From Prevotella sp. (GTDB taxonomy: Bacteria; Bacteroidota; Bacteroidia; Bacteroidales; Bacteroidaceae): DNA of 49,347 nt. A program made the translations under genes and the position numbers. The notes below the pieces were generated by a model that saw nothing but the letters and a program-made list of their open reading frames with translations, was not told the DNA's origin and ran no database searches. Positions within the stretch are counted from its first letter, which is position 1. Each line of letters opens with the position of its first letter. The DNA lies in NCBI GenBank assembly GCA_017561825.1, contig JAFZBK010000001.1:1-49347 (forward strand), given 5' to 3'. Shown here piece after piece: positions 7,701 through 15,277 of this stretch.

Positions 7701-8543
7701 TTAAGTTCCACAAAAAATATGATCTCTATGATATGCCAGGAAGTCGCGATTGGGCATAAACTCAGAGGGCATCGTGAGCTTCTTTCCAATAATACAACCA
7801 AAGTGCTGGGCGTAGTATTCTTTCGTCTCGTTTTCGCGAAGAGCTGAAGATAGATGGACTTTATAGTCATCGGGAGAGAAGGTAATCAGCCCCTTGTCAA
7901 AAGCCTTGTCGTAAAGCGCAGATAGACAGATCCCGTTGCAGGGGTTAAGACGAAATTGCTTATGAGACTTATCTCTCCACGGTATGATATGGCTAGCCAG
8001 TAGCAATTGTGGTATATCGATTCCTGTCAGAGCACAGCGACCGCCATAATTGTAAAGAATCATACGACGGAAGTAGTCCTGACCTTTTCTTTGTTTTGTT
8101 AATGACTCTTTGTCTTCTCCTTCCTTGGTTATGTCAAAGTGGTCAATCAGTTTCTTTGATATTCTCTGTGGATTTGTTTCATGAGCTACAATACGGTCTG
8201 CTTCGATCACCTCCTCTTCATATTGTGCGTACTCGATCAGACTAGACAAAGCTGCAGAGCAAAATCCACCAAGCGGATAACTCTTTTGTTTCGAGCTGCC
8301 AAAGTCAAAGATATTAGGCAGTCCTATCTTCATCTTCTTCACCTCGTCTTTGACCAGATCCAACACTTTCTCTATGATGGAAATGTCATGAATATCATAG
8401 AGCGATTGGCCATTTAAATCAATCACATTCTGATGCAGCAGCACTTTATCAAGAATATTTATCGCTTGAGAATAACTGTTCGCTTTTCCTGAATTCTCTG
8501 GAGAAAGCCTGGTATTGAAATCAATAAAACCCTGTCTGTCCAT
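7701..8543 (-). CDS. HNH endonuclease, restriction-associated
   Basis: A 280-residue protein whose C-terminal 110 residues match the HNH_2 pattern: RCALTGIDIP, then LLASHIIPW with the first catalytic His, NPCNGICLSALYDKAFDKGLI with the Asn and acidic residues. The N-terminal part is helical without a named domain. HNH_2 proteins are common in restriction and other DNA-targeting systems. It lies 135 bp upstream of the restriction operon on the same strand and has its own TATCTTTG promoter box, so it may be a separate unit such as a Vsr-like or second restriction nuclease. Confidence 0.75.
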   Translation of the reverse strand: MDRQGFIDFNTRLSPENSGKANSYSQAINILDKVLLHQNVIDLNGQSLYDIHDISIIEKVLDLVKDEVKKMKIGLPNIFDFGSSKQKSYPLGGFCSAALSSLIEYAQYEEEVIEADRIVAHETNPQRISKKLIDHFDITKEGEDKESLTKQRKGQDYFRRMILYNYGGRCALTGIDIPQLLLASHIIPWRDKSHKQFRLNPCNGICLSALYDKAFDKGLITFSPDDYKVHLSSALRENETKEYYAQHFGCIIGKKLTMPSEFMPNRDFLAYHRDHIFCGT

Positions 8544-8600
8544 GCCATTAGTGTTTCATGAATGTTGTTCCGCTCTACTCTGTTTGTAGTATTTTGTTTA

Positions 8601-8608
8601 CAAAGATA
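8601..8608 (-). promoter_or_regulatory. -7 box upstream of HNH gene
   Basis: CAAAGATA on the plus strand reads TATCTTTG on the minus strand, 58 bp before the HNH start. No good TTTG is present at the right distance, so strength is uncertain. Confidence 0.5.
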
Positions 8609-8713
8609 CGAAAAAAAAACAATACATTTGAATAATAAGGTGGATTTTTTGTTCTTAGACCAAGAAAATCCGCACCGACCCAATGGCGCACGCGCCAAAT
8701 GAAAAATTAAAAA

Positions 8714-8778
8714 TTAACTTCGTTGACTTTTGTCACGACTCGGCCAAACGTGCCAGCACGATGGCTCTTGCTGCTCCA
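8714..8778 (+). repeat. Dispersed hairpin repeat, copy A
   Basis: First of a dispersed family. It starts with TTAACTTCGTTGAC, shares a 28-bp identical block (8717-8744) with copy B, has a CGTGC-ca-GCACG hairpin at 8749-8760, and ends in GCTGCTCCA. Confidence 0.7.
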
Positions 8779-8789
8779 AAAGTTGAAAA

Positions 8790-8858
8790 TTGACTTCGTT
8801 GACTTTTGTCACGACTCGGCATAGTTGATACAAGCATCACTCTGCTCTCGCTGCTCCA
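8790..8858 (+). repeat. Dispersed hairpin repeat, copy B
   Basis: Same family as copy A, with the 28-bp block at 8793-8820, a weaker TGAT-n6-ATCA hairpin and the tail CTCGCTGCTCCA. It lies just before the promoter of the downstream nuclease gene. The remaining bases between 8544 and 8889 hold no gene. Confidence 0.7.
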
Positions 8859-8888
8859 TCGGTTCGGCAATAAAAATATATGATTTAT

Positions 8889-8919
8889 TTTGTATTGCTC
8901 TCAACTTTTCGTACCTTTG
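8889..8919 (+). promoter_or_regulatory. Promoter of CdiA-CT-like nuclease gene
   Basis: TTTG at 8889-8892, then 19 nt, then TACCTTTG at 8912-8919. Transcription should begin near 8924-8926, which rules out the earlier in-frame ATG at 8880 and supports a start at 8940 or 8943. Confidence 0.75.
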
Positions 8920-8942
8920 CAAATAGAATGAGACTATATATG

Positions 8943-9560
8943 ATGGAAGAACGCATGTATACATTAGATATTTTTGAGGATTATGATGATCTTGTCTGGA
9001 TGGTGGAGGAACCAATATGGAAAGGCATTACCGTTGAGTTAAAGGAACTTCACGATCTGAAAGGAGCCAGCTTCATTAAGAAACTGAAGCAGATTGTCTT
9101 CTTGGGCGAATTCCATCCGGTGGAGGGCGAGATGGGTATTTACAGTACAGGAGGCGAACAAAGTCCAGACTATGAAAACCTGTTGAATGCTGCCCGTAAA
9201 GCAGTAGAACATGGTTACCGGGTGTTTATCCTGCCTAATCCGAAAGGTACACGTACGCCAGACTTTATCTTTGAGCAAAAAGGGAATTGCAAGGTATATG
9301 ACCTCAAAACCATATCAGGTAAGGCTTCTGTCAGCAACAGACTGTTTGAGTCAATCGGTCAGAGCAACAGGGTATTACTTAATATGACTGTTGATTATAA
9401 TGCCCGATTGTTAGCATCAGATATAAAAAGTTATTTTGAAACGAATCAGGATGCATTAGAAGTGTTGATATTCAAAGGAAAGAAGGTATTGCCAGTAAAC
9501 AGAATACAAGTGCAAAGTCCCGATTTCAATCGCGTATTTCGTAGGAGATATGAAAAATAA
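8943..9560 (+). CDS. CdiA-CT-like predicted (tRNA) nuclease domain protein
   Basis: About 205 residues. The C-terminal half resembles the tRNase-type CdiA C-terminal toxin domain: a variable region, then TPDFIFE, a Lys-containing strand VYDLKTISGKAS, a helix with SIGQSNRVLLNM, and a final strand LEVLIFKGKKV. In contact-dependent inhibition toxins this fold cuts tRNA and sits at the end of a large secreted protein; here it stands alone, with no signal peptide, and no immunity gene is seen next to it. The start is set by the promoter. The gene ends in a bidirectional hairpin shared with a candidate small RNA on the other strand. Alternatives are a PD-(D/E)XK-like housekeeping nuclease or a toxin remnant. 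Confidence 0.5.
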   Translation: MEERMYTLDIFEDYDDLVWMVEEPIWKGITVELKELHDLKGASFIKKLKQIVFLGEFHPVEGEMGIYSTGGEQSPDYENLLNAARKAVEHGYRVFILPNPKGTRTPDFIFEQKGNCKVYDLKTISGKASVSNRLFESIGQSNRVLLNMTVDYNARLLASDIKSYFETNQDALEVLIFKGKKVLPVNRIQVQSPDFNRVFRRRYEK

Positions 9561-9723: not shown

Positions 9724-9942
9724 CCACCCCATAGGAAGGGGTGAAGATGATTTCGAAGTTGGGTTTCAAATTGGGTATAGGCGACAGATCGTTTGGCTAT
9801 AGGCGCACGATCGTTTGGGTATAAGCAAACGATGGGAAAGAGCCACCCCCTACCCCTCCATAAGGAGGGGTGAAAAGGAAGAAGGAGCCACCACCAGCCC
9901 CTCCATAGGGAGGGGTGAGTCTCTTTCCACAACATATCCCGT
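9724..9942. repeat. GC-rich palindromes and 22-bp tandem units
   Basis: Three palindromes lie here: CACCCC...GGGGTG (9726-9743), CCCCTCCataaGGAGGGG (9854-9871) and CCCCTCCataGGGAGGGG (9898-9915). The last two share a GAGCCACC lead-in, and a close copy sits inside guaA at about 21790-21824. Between them, TATAGGCG...GATCGTTTGG units of 22 bp start at 9776 and 9798 with a partial third at 9820. At 9930-9942 CAACATATCCCGT is the inverse of 15256-15268 beyond the transposon. I see no gene between 9583 and 9984. Confidence 0.6.
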
Positions 9943-9976: not shown

Positions 9977-10013
9977 ACCAACGGGGGGAGGTTATACGAG
10001 TTTACCCTAAATT
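9977..10013. repeat. Left target duplication and terminal inverted repeat
   Basis: ACCAACGG at 9977-9984 (target duplication) followed by the left inverted repeat 9985-10013, beginning GGGGAGGTTATACGAG. Mismatches to the right end are at repeat positions 8, 13 and 25. Confidence 0.88.
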
Positions 10014-10020
10014 GCCTACA

Positions 10021-10057
10021 AACCGCTTAACGAAACACGTTAGGCGGTTTTCCTTTT
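10021..10057 (+). terminator. Terminator just inside left transposon end
   Basis: AACCGCTTAACG (10021-10032), 5-nt loop, CGTTAGGCGGTT (10038-10049) with one G-U pair, then TTTCCTTTT. In this orientation it would stop transcription entering the element from the left. Confidence 0.7.
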
Positions 10058-10188
10058 ATCTAAAGTTTGCCTAACTTGGTAGTTTAGCGTGGCTACAAAA
10101 AACGTAATCATATATTAAACTTTGCTAACGAATATCGGCATTTTATAAGAGCAAAGTTATAAACATCATCACAAATGTAATTGTAGCC

Positions 10189-10596
10189 ATGCATAGAACA
10201 GTAATTATTATAGAGCAGATAGTAAACAATGACGAAAGTTGCCAAATGACCATTAGCGGTGAGCAGGATGGTCACAATATATTTTCCGAAAAATTAAAGT
10301 AGGAAAGTAAAGACGATTATCTTAATTTGTTGCCTATTGTCAATAGCGAAATTGAAAGTAACACAAAACGTTTTTCTATTTCTATTATACGGAAACTACT
10401 TTCTATCTTAATAAAGAGTATTAAAGTTGATGGGGTGTTTTCCTTAAATGATAAGCAAAGGAATGTAAAGTTTCAGTTAATTGGAATGAATACTATTAGG
10501 CAATTTGAACGACTTGCAAATATTAGATTAGATGATAGTAAGTTTTCTACTTTGAATGAATTTCAGTCCTATATGAAATCTATCATTGTAAAATAA
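10189..10596 (+). pseudogene. Transposon passenger gene interrupted by amber codon
   Basis: A continuous frame from the ATG at 10189 is broken only by TAG at 10300-10302 (codon 38 of about 136). Both sides read as protein: 37 residues before it and 98 after it, to the stop at 10594-10596. A single C-to-T change in a CAG glutamine codon would create this, so it is either a nonsense pseudogene or a recoded amber. I do not recognise the product. Upstream 10058-10188 is AT-rich and has promoter-like sequence but no gene. Confidence 0.5.
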
Positions 10597-10644
10597 TCTA
10601 CTTAGCAAGTATAAATCTTTCAAATTCTATAAAAATAATAAGTT

Positions 10645-10944
10645 ATGATTAATCCCATAGAAGAAAGAAAACGACTTGTTCAAAGCCGTATCGAAAAGTC
10701 ATTTAAGGATGGCTTGAATGTTCCAGAAATGGAAGAGTTAGAGAAAGCCCATCAAGTTGGAGATATGCATCCAAATGGCAAGTACGTATGGACAGAGTAT
10801 AAGCCAGGCAAGTTCGATTGGAGACCAAGAAGCGTAAATAAAGATACGGCATCTTCTGGTAAACATGCGGCAAAGTATAAAGATGGCGAACGTCATCCAA
10901 AAAAATCCAAATTTAGTTTGGGTTGCATCCGCTGCTGGTGGTAA
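10645..10944 (+). CDS. Transposon passenger, 5' part of a frameshifted gene
   Basis: Encodes 99 residues. Residues 38-65 carry the segment GDMHPNGKYVWTEYKPG with DWRPRSVNK after it. A second copy of this motif (GERHP, then VWVASAAGGKG and DWRPRSVNK) starts in this frame and is completed in the +1 frame used by the next entry, so the true gene probably spans 10645-12400. The switch point is the A7 run at 10899-10905. After it this frame gives a meaningless tail and stops. Function not recognised; similar W-rich motifs occur in Bacteroidales phage and plasmid proteins as far as I recall. Confidence 0.55.
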   Translation: MINPIEERKRLVQSRIEKSFKDGLNVPEMEELEKAHQVGDMHPNGKYVWTEYKPGKFDWRPRSVNKDTASSGKHAAKYKDGERHPKKSKFSLGCIRCWW

Positions 10945-12400
10945 GGGTGATTGGAGACCAAGAAGCGTAAATAAAGAAAATGGGACAGAAAAGAAAGAAA
11001 ATGATTCTGTTAAAGACAATGAAACAGAAAAGAAACCTGCTACAAAGAAGAATGACTTTGTTAAAAAGCTGAGTTCTCAATCTTCAACGAGGGTTACACC
11101 TAATCTTACAGCCAGACGTTTACGTGGAGCCGAATTGAAACATATCATTAAAACGGTATGTTTAGAGAAAACTCCAACTGACGATGATATTAAGGGATTC
11201 AACGAAAAGTTTGGAACTAAAGTTGGATTGAATAACTTTAAAAGTATTGGTTCAACGGCAAAAAGTAGTCCTGGTCATGTTATTTTCTATAACACCAAGA
11301 CGGGAGAGACATCACCCAGCATTCCAAAGAGTTGGGTTGATTCCTCTGTCGATGAAGAAAAAATAAATAGGATTTCAAATAATAGTACGTTGTCTATTAA
11401 TAAATCTCTGATGAGTGACATTCATATAGAAGATGTTAGTGAGGCACAAGAAATATTAAAGGGTATTGATGCTGATAACGAATTATTTGAAAAGGCACGT
11501 CACGGAGTTTATGCGGATAACGCAGAAAACCGCAGACTTAATCGTGTAGGTCAAGAATATGGTCATGCAGCTGAGAAGAAAGAGCCGACTGGTAAACAGA
11601 GAAGTTCTGGTGAGCAACCGACTGTTGAAGACCACGCAGGTAAGGCTTCAGACAAAGCATTGAAACGAGCCGCTGCCGATAAGAATGCAGACGAGAAAGT
11701 CCGTCAGGCAGCCCAGAAGGAATTACAGAAGCGTGGTGGCGGTGAAGATAATGGCGATAAGGGAGATAAAAACAAGAAAAAAGATACTAATTTGGATTTT
11801 TTAAAGGATAAACGTTATACTCATGTTGAATCCTTTGATTTTGAACGTTTAAAATTTGACGACCATAGTTGCGACCATGTTTTTAATATAACAGTGGGCA
11901 GCAAAAAGGATATGAAAAAAGACATTGACGCTCTTAATGAAAAATTAGGTACTGATATTAAACCAGAGGATTTTAAGAAAAGAACAAGAAGTCAATGGGA
12001 TGGAGGTGGAACATATTACGAATTATATTTCAATAGCGAAAATGGCGAATTTGATAACCATATTCGTGGAGAATGGGAAAAAGACACTAATACTAAAAAA
12101 GAGTTTGACGAAACTCAAGCAATCAATATAATCAATGATTATGAGAGTAGAGGTGTAACCAGAGGTTCAAAAAAGGAATTTAAAGATGCTTGTAATCAAT
12201 ACGGCACTTTATCTGTAGCAAAGCAACTATGTAAACAAAGTAATTGGCATAGTTCGGATGTTAATTCTCGTGATATGCCGAGTAATGAAGATGAGTTGAA
12301 AGCCGCTACTCAAGAGATTTTTAGCATGATGGGTGTCAAGACAGACGCAGAAACAGATAAATATCTTGAATATAACGAAAAGAATGTGAGTTGGTATTAA
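10865..12400 (+). CDS. Large lysine-rich passenger protein, 3' part of frameshifted gene
   Basis: About 500 residues downstream of the frameshift, highly hydrophilic and without signal peptide or membrane segment. It starts with the second copy of the W-x-x-x...DWRPRSVNK motif. Two internal segments look like diverged copies of each other: one around FNEKFGTKVGLNNFKS followed by VIFYNTKTGE, the other around LNEKLGTDIKPEDFKK followed by YYELYFNSENGE. Between them a segment with ALKRAAADKNADEKVRQAAQ is a predicted helical hairpin. No catalytic motif is visible. The ATG at 10865 is within the overlap and may not be used; translation more likely begins at 10645 with a shift. Function unknown. Confidence 0.6.
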   Translation: MRQSIKMANVIQKNPNLVWVASAAGGKGDWRPRSVNKENGTEKKENDSVKDNETEKKPATKKNDFVKKLSSQSSTRVTPNLTARRLRGAELKHIIKTVCLEKTPTDDDIKGFNEKFGTKVGLNNFKSIGSTAKSSPGHVIFYNTKTGETSPSIPKSWVDSSVDEEKINRISNNSTLSINKSLMSDIHIEDVSEAQEILKGIDADNELFEKARHGVYADNAENRRLNRVGQEYGHAAEKKEPTGKQRSSGEQPTVEDHAGKASDKALKRAAADKNADEKVRQAAQKELQKRGGGEDNGDKGDKNKKKDTNLDFLKDKRYTHVESFDFERLKFDDHSCDHVFNITVGSKKDMKKDIDALNEKLGTDIKPEDFKKRTRSQWDGGGTYYELYFNSENGEFDNHIRGEWEKDTNTKKEFDETQAINIINDYESRGVTRGSKKEFKDACNQYGTLSVAKQLCKQSNWHSSDVNSRDMPSNEDELKAATQEIFSMMGVKTDAETDKYLEYNEKNVSWY

Positions 12401-12424
12401 TGATAAAAAATCAAATCGCATAAA

Positions 12425-12453
12425 AAGAGGATAGTTTTTGCAACTATCCTCTT
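12425..12453. terminator. Bidirectional terminator
   Basis: AAGAGGATAGTT-TTTGC-AACTATCCTCTT, a perfect 12-bp stem between two convergent passenger genes, followed by ATATTTT on the plus strand. Confidence 0.8.
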
Positions 12454-12554
12454 ATATTTTGCTAAGTAATGCCGCTCTAACCATTCAGCGATAAGTTTAT
12501 CATCCGATTAATCTGAGGCACGTAGCGGCACAGGAATTGTGTAAATTCGCACAT

Positions 12555-13706
12555 CTAATCAACAAAGTTAATCTTTCCTTTTGGAACATAGGTTATAATG
12601 CCGCATTTCTTAAAATCTTTCAGCGGCAGTCTGCTCACTTGTTTGCCATCGAGTAAAATTTCAAGATTCAACGAGAAGAAACTATATTGCACCCAGTATT
12701 GGTTTTTATCTGGTTCCAACATCTTGTTTAATTCTGCCGCAAGTAAGTTTTCTATATCATCACTAATACCAACAGCGATTTTAACTGATGCGGGTGAGTA
12801 TTTTTCATTTTCCTTTATTTTTCTTTTTTTCGTAACCAAATTGTCGAAGATGTAAGTTGGTTCCTTTCTATTTATTGTCCAATGTCCCATTTTCTTGTCG
12901 TATTTAACAAGCGATATAAGATTTGCTTGCCTATCGCTTGTAATGCCTCTTAATACTATCGACATATTTGCTTCTTGTCCTACATCAACTTTCTTATCTA
13001 TATTCTCAAATTCATATTTCGCCACTTCATCAACCCTAAGTCCTGCTTGTTCGAAAAGCGTTTTGGTTGATAAATCTTCCGTTTCAGGAATAGTAATTGT
13101 CTTGTCTTTACTGATAATCACCTTACATTTAAGCGAACAGATAACATCAGAATTTCCCTGCAAATCAAAAGGCTTAAAATTATCTTCAATTAGTTTATCA
13201 AAGACATCGGGATTTGTGCAAGAAACGACAGCATTTTTAGCAACCTTATCAGATGGCAAATTTGGTGCGCCTTCAGTTTGCCATTTTGTATAAGTGTCTT
13301 CATCATCTTTTATTGCCTTTTCTCTGCGTTCCCTTGCTTCTTTAACTTTAGGATTGTTGTTGTATATCTTTAGTGCGATGTCATATTCTTGTGGCGTAAA
13401 TCCAAATTCTTTGAAAACGAGATAACCATAGTCACCAGTCCCATAGTAATTAAATAATTTCACAAAGAAATTTTCTGCATATTGCGGCTTTTGATTAATT
13501 GCCGCTATTGCACCATCCATAGAGCGCAATTCATACGGATTTATATTATTAGCATCGCAAAAAAGTTTTGTTATTATAGGTGGATGCTTCTGTAAGTGGT
13601 AAGATAACTTGTAAGCCATCTGTGGCGTTACTAAAGATTTGTTGCTTTGAGCATACATGAAAGTACTCATAGCAAGTAAAAACATTAAAACTAAGACTTT
13701 TTTCAT
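12555..13706 (-). CDS. Secreted passenger protein of unknown function
   Basis: 383 residues with a clear Sec signal peptide (MKKVLVLMFLLAMSTFMYAQ). The mature part is charged and mostly alpha in its first half (residues about 25-140), with beta-rich segments later. I recognise no domain and no catalytic motif. A cysteine pair (around VVSCTN and CSLKCK) could form a disulfide. Its mRNA leader is unusually long, about 180 nt, and can fold in two exclusive ways, one of which would cover the bases just before the start codon. Located between the convergent passenger gene and the transposase module inside the IS1595-type element. Confidence 0.65.
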   Translation of the reverse strand: MKKVLVLMFLLAMSTFMYAQSNKSLVTPQMAYKLSYHLQKHPPIITKLFCDANNINPYELRSMDGAIAAINQKPQYAENFFVKLFNYYGTGDYGYLVFKEFGFTPQEYDIALKIYNNNPKVKEARERREKAIKDDEDTYTKWQTEGAPNLPSDKVAKNAVVSCTNPDVFDKLIEDNFKPFDLQGNSDVICSLKCKVIISKDKTITIPETEDLSTKTLFEQAGLRVDEVAKYEFENIDKKVDVGQEANMSIVLRGITSDRQANLISLVKYDKKMGHWTINRKEPTYIFDNLVTKKRKIKENEKYSPASVKIAVGISDDIENLLAAELNKMLEPDKNQYWVQYSFFSLNLEILLDGKQVSRLPLKDFKKCGIITYVPKGKINFVD

Positions 13707-13888
13707 AAGGCGATACTTTATTTGTTATTATATACGAAACGTGGACTGCCACCCATGCCATCGTAAAGTATCGCCAAACACTTGTAAATACGCACAGATG
13801 AACAGCCCACGTATGAGCTGCCTCTGCGTCTTGTATTTACCCATTTGTCGAAATTTGGCGATTTTAACGATGGTAAGACGCATTCGTC
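13707..13888 (-). promoter_or_regulatory. Long structured 5' leader, possible RNA switch
   Basis: The leader of the secreted passenger gene. In mRNA sense, CCATCGTTAAAATCGCCAAA (13873-13854) can pair with TTTGGCGATACTTTACGATGG-like bases at 13778-13758, enclosing GTAAATAC/GTATTTAC (13840-13833 with 13791-13784), CAGA/TCTG and CAGC/GCTG stems. The same 3' arm contains GGCGATACTTTA (13775-13764), which is also perfectly complementary (12 bp) to TAAAGTATCGCC at 13720-13709, ending 2 nt before the ATG. The two pairings cannot coexist, the usual logic of a riboswitch or an antisense- or translation-controlled leader. I do not recognise an aptamer class. Confidence 0.55.
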
Positions 13889-13892
13889 GGTG

Positions 13893-13926
13893 CAAAGATA
13901 CAAAATGTTTGGCGAAATAAGACAAA
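13893..13926 (-). promoter_or_regulatory. Promoter of structured leader
   Basis: Minus-strand TATCTTTG (13900-13893) with TTTG at 13926-13923, spacing 22 nt, slightly longer than usual. Transcription would start near 13888. Confidence 0.55.
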
Positions 13927-14124
13927 TCAATCGTTTTTCTTTTGCTTTTTTAATTCTCTCTGTCGTTTTCGTTCAGCTTTTTCCTCTGCTAAGCGTTTTC
14001 TGAGTGCTTTCATATCAACCCGTAAGCATGGTTTTATCAGTTCGCCAAAGTCTATTGGTTCATGCTCTTCATCTAACCATTCTTGGGGGATAGCCATTTC
14101 TTTACGCTGCCTTTTTGTTTTCAT
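13927..14124 (-). CDS. Small basic protein coupled to transposase
   Basis: 65 residues, the C-terminal 30 almost entirely Lys, Arg, Glu and Gln in a likely coiled coil (KALRKRLAEEKAERKRQREL). It begins 23 bp before the transposase stop, in a different frame, so it is translationally coupled. It could be a DNA-binding accessory factor for transposition. Function not recognised. Confidence 0.55.
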   Translation of the reverse strand: MKTKRQRKEMAIPQEWLDEEHEPIDFGELIKPCLRVDMKALRKRLAEEKAERKRQRELKKQKKND

Positions 14125-15049
14125 TTATCAGTTGTTTATAAGTGAGACGTTTGCGGCAATTACTAATTGCGATTTCAAATTGCTCACTTGTTTTAACGTT
14201 GCGAGTGTTATAACGGAATGCAAATTCATTGAAATAACGCTGCATATGACGCTTTATAACATAGTTATAGATACCAATAATAGACCTTTTACAATAGTTT
14301 CCCCAAAAGCCTTCAATGGTATTCGTGTAGGCACCTCCATCAACGTAAATTCCGTGTCCGTGGTCAACAACGTGGTGTGTATAGAGTTTGTGAATGTACT
14401 TATAGCCACGCCACTCGTCAGAGTATATCGTTGCAGTACGTTTTACATACTTTAGTACTGGTGGCGTTAGTTGCTTGTAAGAAACTCCATCGAGCACCTT
14501 ACAAACAACAATTCCGTTACGCTGCATTATTCCCATTACAGGCACCTTATCTCTAAACGACCTATTATCCACGTGCTTTGTCTTCTTGTTCCAATGTCTA
14601 TTTTTGTTCTTGCCGCCAACGAAAGTTTCATCTATTTCCACTTCGCCATCAAATTTCTCTGTGATAGGAATATCGTACATTTGTCTTATTCTATGGCTGA
14701 GAAACCACGCAGTTTTCTTTGTCACGCCCATAGTACGTGAAAGTTGTTCGCTTGAAATTCCTTTCTTATGAGAATTGATGAGATAGATTGCCGTGAACCA
14801 AGTCCTTAGTGGCAACTTAGTATTCTCGAAAATCGTTCCGACTTTTACATTAAAGTTCTTGCCAGTGTCTTTACATCTATATGTGCCGTCTTTTCTGCGA
14901 TAAACTTTAGAAGTAGGTGAATATGGAGAAATCGGTGTACCATCACCCCAAAGTTCTCTTTCCAAGAAAGCAATGCAGGCTTTCTCAGTCCGAAACGTCT
15001 CTTGAAGTTGTCTTAGAGACTTGAATTTGGGCAATATAAATTTCTTCAT
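14102..15049 (-). CDS. IS1595-family (ISXO2-like) transposase
   Basis: Catalyses movement of the surrounding 5.3-kb element. The DDE core is clear: Asp140 in EIDETFVGG, Asp211 in YSDEWRGY, and the third acidic residue (Glu246) in NTIEGFW, followed by a helix with YNYVIKRHMQRYFNEFAFRYN typical of the ISXO2 domain. An HTH-like segment ISSEQLSRTMGVTKKTAW precedes the core. The N-terminal zinc ribbon of this family is degraded: only one of the four expected cysteines is left (YRCKDTGK). I chose the ATG at 15049; a TTG four codons earlier is possible. About 315 residues, full length. Confidence 0.9.
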   Translation of the reverse strand: MKKFILPKFKSLRQLQETFRTEKACIAFLERELWGDGTPISPYSPTSKVYRRKDGTYRCKDTGKNFNVKVGTIFENTKLPLRTWFTAIYLINSHKKGISSEQLSRTMGVTKKTAWFLSHRIRQMYDIPITEKFDGEVEIDETFVGGKNKNRHWNKKTKHVDNRSFRDKVPVMGIMQRNGIVVCKVLDGVSYKQLTPPVLKYVKRTATIYSDEWRGYKYIHKLYTHHVVDHGHGIYVDGGAYTNTIEGFWGNYCKRSIIGIYNYVIKRHMQRYFNEFAFRYNTRNVKTSEQFEIAISNCRKRLTYKQLINENKKAA

Positions 15050-15103
15050 ATACGCAAGCAATAAACTTGTTTGCGTATAATAACTTTGCTGAGTTTTGGA
15101 GAA

Positions 15104-15277
15104 ATGTTAAAAACTGGTGTTTTGGAGGTATTAGAAAGTAACCAATCTCTTAAATTGTTAGATTTTAAAGGGGTTTTGAGAGATTGGTTAAATATTCTTA
15201 ATGAAGTTGCCCAACGTTACGAAATTCAGGGTAAACTCATATACCCTCCCCACCAACGGGATATGTTGGGGGGTTAA
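15104..15277 (+). CDS. Possible small protein ending in the right transposon end
   Basis: 57 codons from the ATG at 15104, behind a TAACTTTG box at 15080-15087 divergent from the transposase. The reading frame crosses the right inverted repeat and stops just outside it, so its last residues depend on the target site. An 11-bp inverted repeat (AACCAATCTCT / AGAGATTGGTT) lies within. The leucine-rich pattern is plausible for a small protein, but no family is recognised. Confidence 0.3.
   Translation: MLKTGVLEVLESNQSLKLLDFKGVLRDWLNILNEVAQRYEIQGKLIYPPHQRDMLGG
15223..15259. repeat. Right terminal inverted repeat and target duplication
   Basis: Right inverted repeat 15223-15251, ending in CCCTCCCC, then the target duplication ACCAACGG at 15252-15259. 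The bases 15256-15268 (ACGGGATATGTTG) are the inverse of 9930-9942. Confidence 0.88.

What the first reader, a model, noticed from the sequence alone, without database searches (positions are those of the whole stretch)
9985..15251. IS1595-type transposon of 5.3 kb with cargo, caught with its target duplication
The 29-bp ends (26/29 identical, inverted) are flanked by the same ACCAACGG on both sides, and the enclosed transposase is IS1595/ISXO2-like, a family known for 8-bp duplications. Most IS1595 elements are about 1-2 kb; this one carries at least four extra genes, one a secreted protein with a structured leader. It split a palindromic repeat whose two halves (9930-9942, 15256-15268) are complementary.
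Basis: partly seen in the sequence, partly recalled or inferred. Interest (0 to 1): 0.75.

Follow-up and report, generated by a model that had tools for sequence, protein, structure and literature searches.

The report
Transposon carrying a new switch-like RNA
The 5.3-kb stretch is a real cargo-carrying transposon of a known family, but its structured leader turns out to belong to a widespread, unlisted family of switch-like RNAs that sit in front of mostly exported-protein genes in Bacteroidota and are recurrently carried by such transposons.

Summary
9985-15251 is a 5,267-bp IS1595-family (ISXO2-like) element: 26/29 inverted ends, exact 8-bp duplication ACCAACGG, open transposase gene (PF12762, 4.9e-38). 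As a kind it is known ('transporter IS'), and cargo is the rule among its relatives: 89 of 159 fetched loci show exact 8-bp duplications and matching ends, at 1.5-10 kb. Two passengers look broken. No natural empty site was found in 200 same-genus genomes.

The surprise is the 'structured leader' (13739-13884, minus strand). It belongs to an RNA family with no credible Rfam 15 match: 102 distinct sequences, 36 pairs, 974 cells changed on both sides versus 252 in shuffles, G-U 218 versus A-C 29. Models of it hit 158 of 398 same-genus and 70 of 247 same-order genomes. The next gene is on the same strand in 78 of 87 copies (control 52%), mostly with a hydrophobic N-terminus (61 of 78; control 26%). 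It is concentrated in IS1595-type transposons: 19 of 89 bounded elements carry it, against one copy in 1.18 Mb outside. Its helices form mutually exclusive sets, one abutting the start codon, so a bistable expression switch is the best explanation. What it senses is unknown.

The parts
9977..9984 (.). left copy of the 8-bp target duplication ACCAACGG
9985..10013 (+). left terminal inverted repeat (26/29 with the right end)
10189..10596 (+). distal passenger frame; its open part 10327-10596 matches a gene at the distal end of related elements L058, L072, L067, L074 and L034; interrupted by an in-frame TAG at 10300
10645..12400 (+). passenger coding region split over two frames (ORFs 10645-10944 and 10865-12400); no Pfam or PHROG match for either ORF, no PADLOC match for the larger; the larger ORF is in none of the other 397 same-genus genomes searched
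12555..13706 (-). 383-aa passenger with a signal-peptide-like N-terminus, directly downstream of the RNA; no significant Pfam, PHROG or PADLOC match
13739..13884 (-). core of the structured RNA (model R1 125.8 bits, R2 116.6 bits): P0 13867-13872/13759-13764, P1 13854-13862/13770-13778, P3 13815-13820/13803-13808; rival helices P4 13802-13812/13739-13749 and P5 13876-13882/13825-13831
13709..13720 (-). 3' strand of P6, complementary over 12 bases to 13764-13775 and ending 2 bases before the start codon
13893..13900 (-). TATCTTTG, like the Bacteroidetes -7 promoter box (consensus recalled)
13927..14124 (-). 65-aa basic ORF overlapping the 3' end of the transposase gene; similar position and weak similarity (E 0.032) in L068
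14102..15061 (-). IS1595/ISXO2-like transposase, 319 aa
15223..15251 (-). right terminal inverted repeat
15252..15259 (.). right copy of the 8-bp target duplication

Best explanation
The stretch is a single insertion of an IS1595-family transposon that carries passenger genes. One passenger, a probably exported 383-aa protein, is preceded by a copy of a structured RNA family that is widespread in Bacteroidales and recurrent in such transposons. The RNA most likely works as a bistable cis-acting leader. In one fold (P0/P1/P2/P3, one long hairpin) the middle strand is held by the 5' strand and the start region is free. In the other (P5, P4 and P6) the same strands re-pair and the middle strand covers the bases just before the start codon, or, in copies where P4 is followed by a run of U, P4 forms a terminator-like end. 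The choice between folds would set the output of the passenger gene. Shown by computation: the ends, the duplication, the RNA family, its helices and their mutual exclusion, and its position before genes. Inferred: that the RNA switches, that it controls expression, and that a signal drives it.
For: Transposon. RNA family: fold A in 22 sequences, 18 of 36 pairs with both-side changes (91 cells versus 30 shuffled); 60 sequences, 442 versus 118; 102 distinct, 974 versus 252, score 0.698 versus at most 0.097 for slid controls. Rival helices P4+P5: 100% of 328 cells paired, 7 of 15 pairs with both-side changes; P4 in the larger alignment, which was not fitted to it: 46 versus 12.6 cells. P6: 29 of 103 copies repeat their own P1 core within 14 bases before an ATG (0.67 expected); the flanking bases fit their own P0 strand fully in 25 of 29, versus 34% for copies with another P0 strand. 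G-U 218 versus A-C 29 points to RNA on this strand. The folds are close in energy: window -59.7 versus -56.0, median gap 3.6 kcal/mol over 22. Next ORF of 100 aa or more on the same strand in 78 of 87 copies (control 1048 of 2000), hydrophobic N-terminus 61 of 78 (control 274 of 1048); promoter-like box within 90 bases upstream 77 of 103 (control 9%); U-run of 5 or more at the 3' end 56 of 103 (control 5%) (earlier counts with a looser rule). Inside transposons.
Against: No expression, probing or ligand data. P6 is found in only 29 of 103 copies and a U-run in 56 of 103, so one mechanism may not fit all. The exclusive helices could also be parts of one pseudoknotted fold (P0, P1, P2a, P4 and P5 do not share bases). 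Downstream genes are very diverse, which gives no clue to a signal. Among the places listed, only five (in G000, G032, G084, G273, G290) lie at a transposase place; most copies are elsewhere.
Confidence: 0.72

Rival explanations
1. Plain transporter IS: the leader is an incidental promoter and 5' UTR with no regulatory role, and the element is an ordinary member of the IS1595 family.
For: Ends, duplication and cargo are what the family is known for (passage on transporter ISs in PMC3129680).
Against: Covariation in 102 distinct sequences with alternative helices is not expected of an incidental leader.
Confidence: 0.12
2. The RNA is one compact pseudoknotted structure (P0, P1, P2a with P4 and P5), an aptamer, ribozyme or protein-binding site, rather than a two-state switch.
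For: P4 and P5 form standard pairs in all cells with letters, and these helices share no bases with P0, P1 and P2a; strongly conserved bases.
Against: P3 and P2b covary too and conflict with P4 and P5; the 3' repeat before the start codon competes for the P0/P1 strand.
Confidence: 0.25
3. The RNA is an independent small RNA with its own promoter and terminator (P4 plus U-run) and only happens to lie before genes.
For: Promoter-like box upstream in 77 of 103 copies (control 9%) and U-run of 5 or more at the 3' end in 56 of 103 (control 5%).
Against: The next ORF is on the same strand in 78 of 87 copies against 52% in the control, and starts within 100 bases in 61 of these 78; P6 abuts start codons.
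Confidence: 0.15
4. The element is not a unit insertion but a chance juxtaposition of repeats.
For: No empty site was found.
Against: Only such pair among 9,879 in the window; ends of the same kind and 8-bp duplications in 89 of 159 relatives; the same test gave no family-like ends around 33 other RNA copies.
Confidence: 0.01

Closest known systems
IS1595 family, transporter ISs (Siguier, Gagnevin and Chandler 2009; not read, seen only as cited in passages of PMC3129680 and PMC3942029)
   Same: ISXO2-like transposase, inverted ends starting GG, 8-bp duplication, passenger genes
   Different: the N-terminal zinc ribbon is degenerate (one of four cysteines kept); recurrent RNA-leader-plus-exported-protein module; the target ACCAACGG is not A/T-rich, unlike most relatives
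Riboswitches and transcription attenuators (as a kind)
   Same: structured 5' leader close to the start codon, mutually exclusive helices, U-run in many copies
   Different: no credible match to any of 4,227 Rfam families in the stretches scanned; no known ligand; very diverse downstream genes
Bacteroidales-1, Bacteroid-trp and other Bacteroidetes motifs of Weinberg et al. 2010 (PMC2864571, table seen in passages)
   Same: structured RNA candidates of Bacteroidetes
   Different: those with an Rfam number were covered by the Rfam scans and did not match; Bacteroides-2, without a number, is described as found in one sequenced organism and unaffiliated with mRNAs; GUCCY-hairpin, also without a number, was not compared

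Membership tests
IS1595 family | ISXO2-like DDE transposase domain | tested here: met
   PF12762 E 4.9e-38, 131 bits against a cut-off of 27
IS1595 family | terminal inverted repeats flanked by an 8-bp target duplication (length recalled as typical of the family) | tested here: met
   26/29 ends and exact ACCAACGG; same kind in 89 of 159 relatives
IS1595 family | N-terminal zinc ribbon | tested here: not met
   PF12760 E 0.054, 13.9 bits against a cut-off of 25.4; three of four cysteines replaced in the window's clade, kept in the sister clade. Not a feature I treat as excluding membership
IS1595 family | DDN(K) catalytic residues (recalled) | tested here: inconclusive
   D144 and D215 invariant, N247 nearly invariant in 18 sequences; assignment to catalysis is from memory
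IS1595 family | transposition activity | not testable with these tools
   one place in its genome assembly
transporter IS | passenger genes unrelated to transposition between the ends | tested here: met
   passenger regions
any Rfam 15 family | match at or above the gathering score | tested here: not met
   window and 20 loci with the RNA: only tRNA and SRP hits; E up to 5 on three single stretches: nothing near a cut-off
riboswitch | conserved structured leader with mutually exclusive helices touching the expression platform | tested here: met
   by comparison of sequences only, and P6 in 29 of 103 copies
riboswitch | ligand-dependent change of fold and expression | not testable with these tools
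   needs in-line probing and reporters

The most novel reading that the evidence does not exclude
A new, Bacteroidota-wide class of bistable, riboswitch-like leader RNAs that acts as a mobile control cassette: IS1595-type transposons repeatedly carry it together with a swappable exported-protein gene (and once a PvuRts1I-like restriction gene), so that regulation travels with the cargo.
Probability: 0.45. Interest if true: 0.88.

Novelty: new variant of a known kind. Interest (0 to 1): 0.72.

Why it matters
The transposon by itself is a further member of a known kind. The RNA is different: it is well supported by covariation, hit in about 40% of the same-genus genomes searched and in 56 of 174 genera of the order, without a credible Rfam match, and placed mostly before exported or membrane protein genes. 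If it is a switch, its signal can be tested directly, and its spread inside transposons would show regulatory RNA moving as a unit with cargo.

Tried and rejected
Single-sequence searches of viral contigs with the transposase and the 511-aa passenger found nothing; the profile search did. The 511-aa passenger had no match in phage records. Idea that the leader is a conserved peptide: rejected, because the same motif is read in different frames in L058, L072, L075 and L147. Idea that it is a known RNA: rejected at Rfam level. Idea that the downstream genes form one defence system: not supported; 41 Pfam families in 90 proteins, none in more than 4, and seven PADLOC families, each in one protein. 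Idea that the other RNA copies are transposase-less IS1595 remnants: 33 copies in loci L258-L331 showed no family-like ends (three weak pairs, two of them A/T-rich, were rejected), but several lie near a contig end, so both ends could not always be seen. The transposase was found in 3 of 104 loci L228-L331, and those three are the elements of G000, G084 and G032. L260, a 3-kb contig, carries an ORF like the distal passenger of L068-type elements and may be a transposon fragment. Structure models were too poor to search: 383-aa protein pLDDT 47.9, distal passenger family pLDDT 58.9. The 383-aa passenger was not searched for in whole genomes.

Rows dropped: four end calls (L122, L127, L205, L219) because their ends do not look like the family's, leaving 89. 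Some of the 89 are near-duplicates (L181/L182/L184, L187/L188, L204/L207, L213/L215), and L071 is the same contig as L034. The 159 loci are capped lists of the best hits. In one search, 90 of the 95 ORFs were used; the 18 RNA copies without a usable ORF were left out. The strand rule (95 of 101 on the same strand, 65 of 95 hydrophobic against 67 of 243) let in more same-strand ORFs than opposite ones, so I recounted with a rule that treats both strands alike and give those numbers. The energies force pairs that fit five divergent copies poorly.

Paper searches: searches listed nothing that describes this RNA or an RNA in IS1595 elements; papers were seen as listings, and four (PMC2864571, PMC10994844, PMC3942029, PMC3129680) in passages. 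Subscription papers are mostly not held, so this is weak.
Full report
1. The element. The window stretch 9985-15251 has ends that match 26/29 in inverted orientation and is flanked by ACCAACGG on both sides. Of 9,879 pairs of exact 8-bp repeats 0.5-10 kb apart in the window, no other has inverted ends matching at 16/24 or better. The transposase (14102-15061, minus) carries the ISXO2-like domain PF12762 at 4.9e-38. The element's DNA matches one place in its genome assembly, which is 88% complete. The genus is very probably Prevotella: one same-genus contig (G273:C57, 18,540 bases) has the same length and transposase position as a public record named uncultured Prevotella sp. (L071).

2. Relatives. 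63 of 398 same-genus genomes have a transposase match at E 0.001. Of the window plus 33 wider loci, 23 of 34 show an exact 8-bp duplication with ends matching 18-24 of 24. Of 159 loci from named genomes and viral contigs (the capped best lists), 93 passed 17/24; I dropped four with unlike ends, leaving 89, with lengths 1,485-9,951 bp. So carrying cargo is normal here, and 5.3 kb is not extreme. Most relatives have A/T-rich duplications; ACCAACGG is an exception. The window's clade has lost three of the four zinc-ribbon cysteines that the sister clade keeps.

3. Passengers. The open part of 10189-10596 matches by BLAST a gene at the distal end of L058, L072, L067, L074 and L034 (= L071), and weakly L174; four to five more elements have a gene in the same place that aligns at only 15-24% identity. 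In the window the frame is interrupted by a TAG at 10300. 10645-12400 is split over two frames; its larger ORF was found in none of the other 397 same-genus genomes searched. 12555-13706 encodes a 383-aa protein with a signal-peptide-like start. A 65-aa ORF overlaps the end of the transposase gene. No passenger has a significant Pfam match; PHROGs gave only a weak hit for 10327-10596 (phrog_10084, E 0.004); the 511-aa and 383-aa proteins have no PADLOC match, and the two small ones were not scanned there.

4. Target. The arms 9930-9942 and 15256-15268 are exact complements, but the right arm shares four bases with the duplication, and the sequence is not a repeat family in the window. A search of 200 same-genus genomes with the joined flanks found no match across the junction, so the empty site is inferred only.

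5. The RNA. The region upstream of the 383-aa gene folds better than all 200 shuffles (z -3.95). A sequence profile of it found 21 further distinct loci among those fetched for the transposase, one of them a contig of the phage collection, giving 22 sequences (A2). A structure named by me (P0, P1, P2a, P2b, P3) is 92.5% paired with 91 both-side changes versus 30 shuffled. Two further helices, P4 and P5, are paired in every cell with letters, with 7 of 15 pairs changed on both sides; RNAalifold by itself chose these two. A covariance model (R1) was extended to 60 (A3) and 103 sequences (A4): 974 both-side changes versus 252, covariation score 0.698 versus at most 0.097 for slid controls. A3 and A4 are fitted to the first structure, so their counts for it lean towards it; P4 was not part of the model and still gives 46 versus 12.6. 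Non-standard pairs are mostly G-U (218) rather than A-C (29; other 199), which is what RNA of this strand would give.

6. Distribution. R1 hits 158 of 398 same-genus genomes at E 0.001 (the list of places was capped and its weak tail not inspected). R2 hits 70 of 247 genomes of the order, in 56 of 174 genera, and 6 of 296 of the phylum; each count includes the window's own genome, which has one copy. Rfam found only tRNAs in 20 of these loci, and nothing near a cut-off at E up to 5 in three single stretches. E-values of R1 and R2 are rough, and the wide searches used stricter filters.

7. Link with transposons. Of the 89 bounded elements, 19 carry the RNA inside (L071 counted; it is L034 again), and one copy (L075:8427-8604, next to an element) lies in the 1.18 Mb outside; 0.28 Mb is inside. 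L032, L047 and L058 add three more inside. Eight of these 22 (L047, L089, L111, L139, L144, L156, L206, L211) were not in the model and are weaker (E 1e-5 to 4e-11); their hosts include Chryseobacterium and Ferruginibacter. Of the 17 loci whose transposase is at least 54% identical to the window's, 14 have the RNA; the others are L076 (3.8-kb contig), L077 (contig ends in the gene) and L081. Outside: among the places listed only five lie at a transposase place, the transposase was absent from 101 of 104 RNA loci L228-L331 as far as they reach, and 33 such copies showed no family-like ends.

8. Position. With a rule that treats both strands alike, the next ORF of at least 100 aa is on the same strand in 78 of 87 copies (control positions 1048 of 2000); it starts within 100 bases in 61 of these 78; 61 of 78 have a hydrophobic N-terminus (control 274 of 1048). 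A promoter-like TAnnTTTG lies within 90 bases upstream in 77 of 103 copies (control 9%), and a U-run of 5 or more at the 3' end in 56 of 103 (control 5%). The proteins are diverse: 41 Pfam families over 90 proteins, the commonest (secretion-tail domain) in four, BspA-like repeats in three. One RNA in a transposon (L047) precedes a PvuRts1I-like, SRA-containing restriction enzyme; another copy (L267) precedes a restriction-methylation enzyme.

9. Mechanism. P3 and P4 share a strand, P2b and P5 share a strand, and P0/P1 compete with a 3' repeat (P6). The 3' repeat lies within 14 bases before an ATG in 29 of 103 copies (0.67 expected), and fits its own P0 strand fully in 25 of 29, versus 34% for copies with another P0 strand. 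A first, looser duplex test separated own from other strands only weakly (34% of others as good or better). In the window the folds are -59.7 and -56.0 kcal/mol, and P6 forced gives -56.0; the median gap over 22 copies is 3.6 kcal/mol, with the second fold better in 6 (forced pairs fit the divergent copies poorly). I read this as a two-state leader that exposes or covers the start region, with a terminator-like end in copies that have a U-run. That it switches, and on what signal, is inference.

10. Verdict. The transposon is real and of a known kind. The RNA leader is the valuable part: a strongly supported structured RNA family without a credible Rfam match, with the layout of a switch, recurrent in IS1595-type transposons.

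Noticed in passing
L038-L056 and L175-L203 (sister clade of the transposase, about 40% identical): Passenger proteins that are otherwise unrelated share a portable segment of about 25 residues, like NKKLIRLTESDLHRIVKESVNRVLNE, often at the N-terminus; 24 of 342 fetched loci, 16 distinct places. Seven of these are in viral contigs of 7-147 kb; other relatives of the transposase lie in viral contigs up to 413 kb. It could be a targeting tag; no match in the phage collection.
   Followed up: partly
L037:10737-14907: A 7.8-kb element of this family carries a T4-type baseplate gene (PF12322, 6.5e-9) and a 1,132-aa gene, so these elements may move phage tail genes.
   Followed up: no
L047:9950-11041: RNA leader in a transposon directly before a PvuRts1I-like restriction enzyme, i.e. 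a possible RNA-controlled anti-phage cargo.
   Followed up: partly
L089:9911-10942, L093:991-1974, L126:9917-11050, L156:10092-11063: A second gene overlaps (L089, L093, L126) or closely follows (L156) the transposase gene in several elements, possibly a transposition partner.
   Followed up: no
L326:4491-5571 and L325:1261-2535: Two RNA copies about 1 kb apart in tandem; in L325 each precedes a similar secreted-protein-like ORF.
   Followed up: no
window 7701-9560: Neighbours of the element: an HNH_2 nuclease gene and a gene with a weak CdiA C-terminal (PF18451, below its cut-off) match.
   Followed up: no
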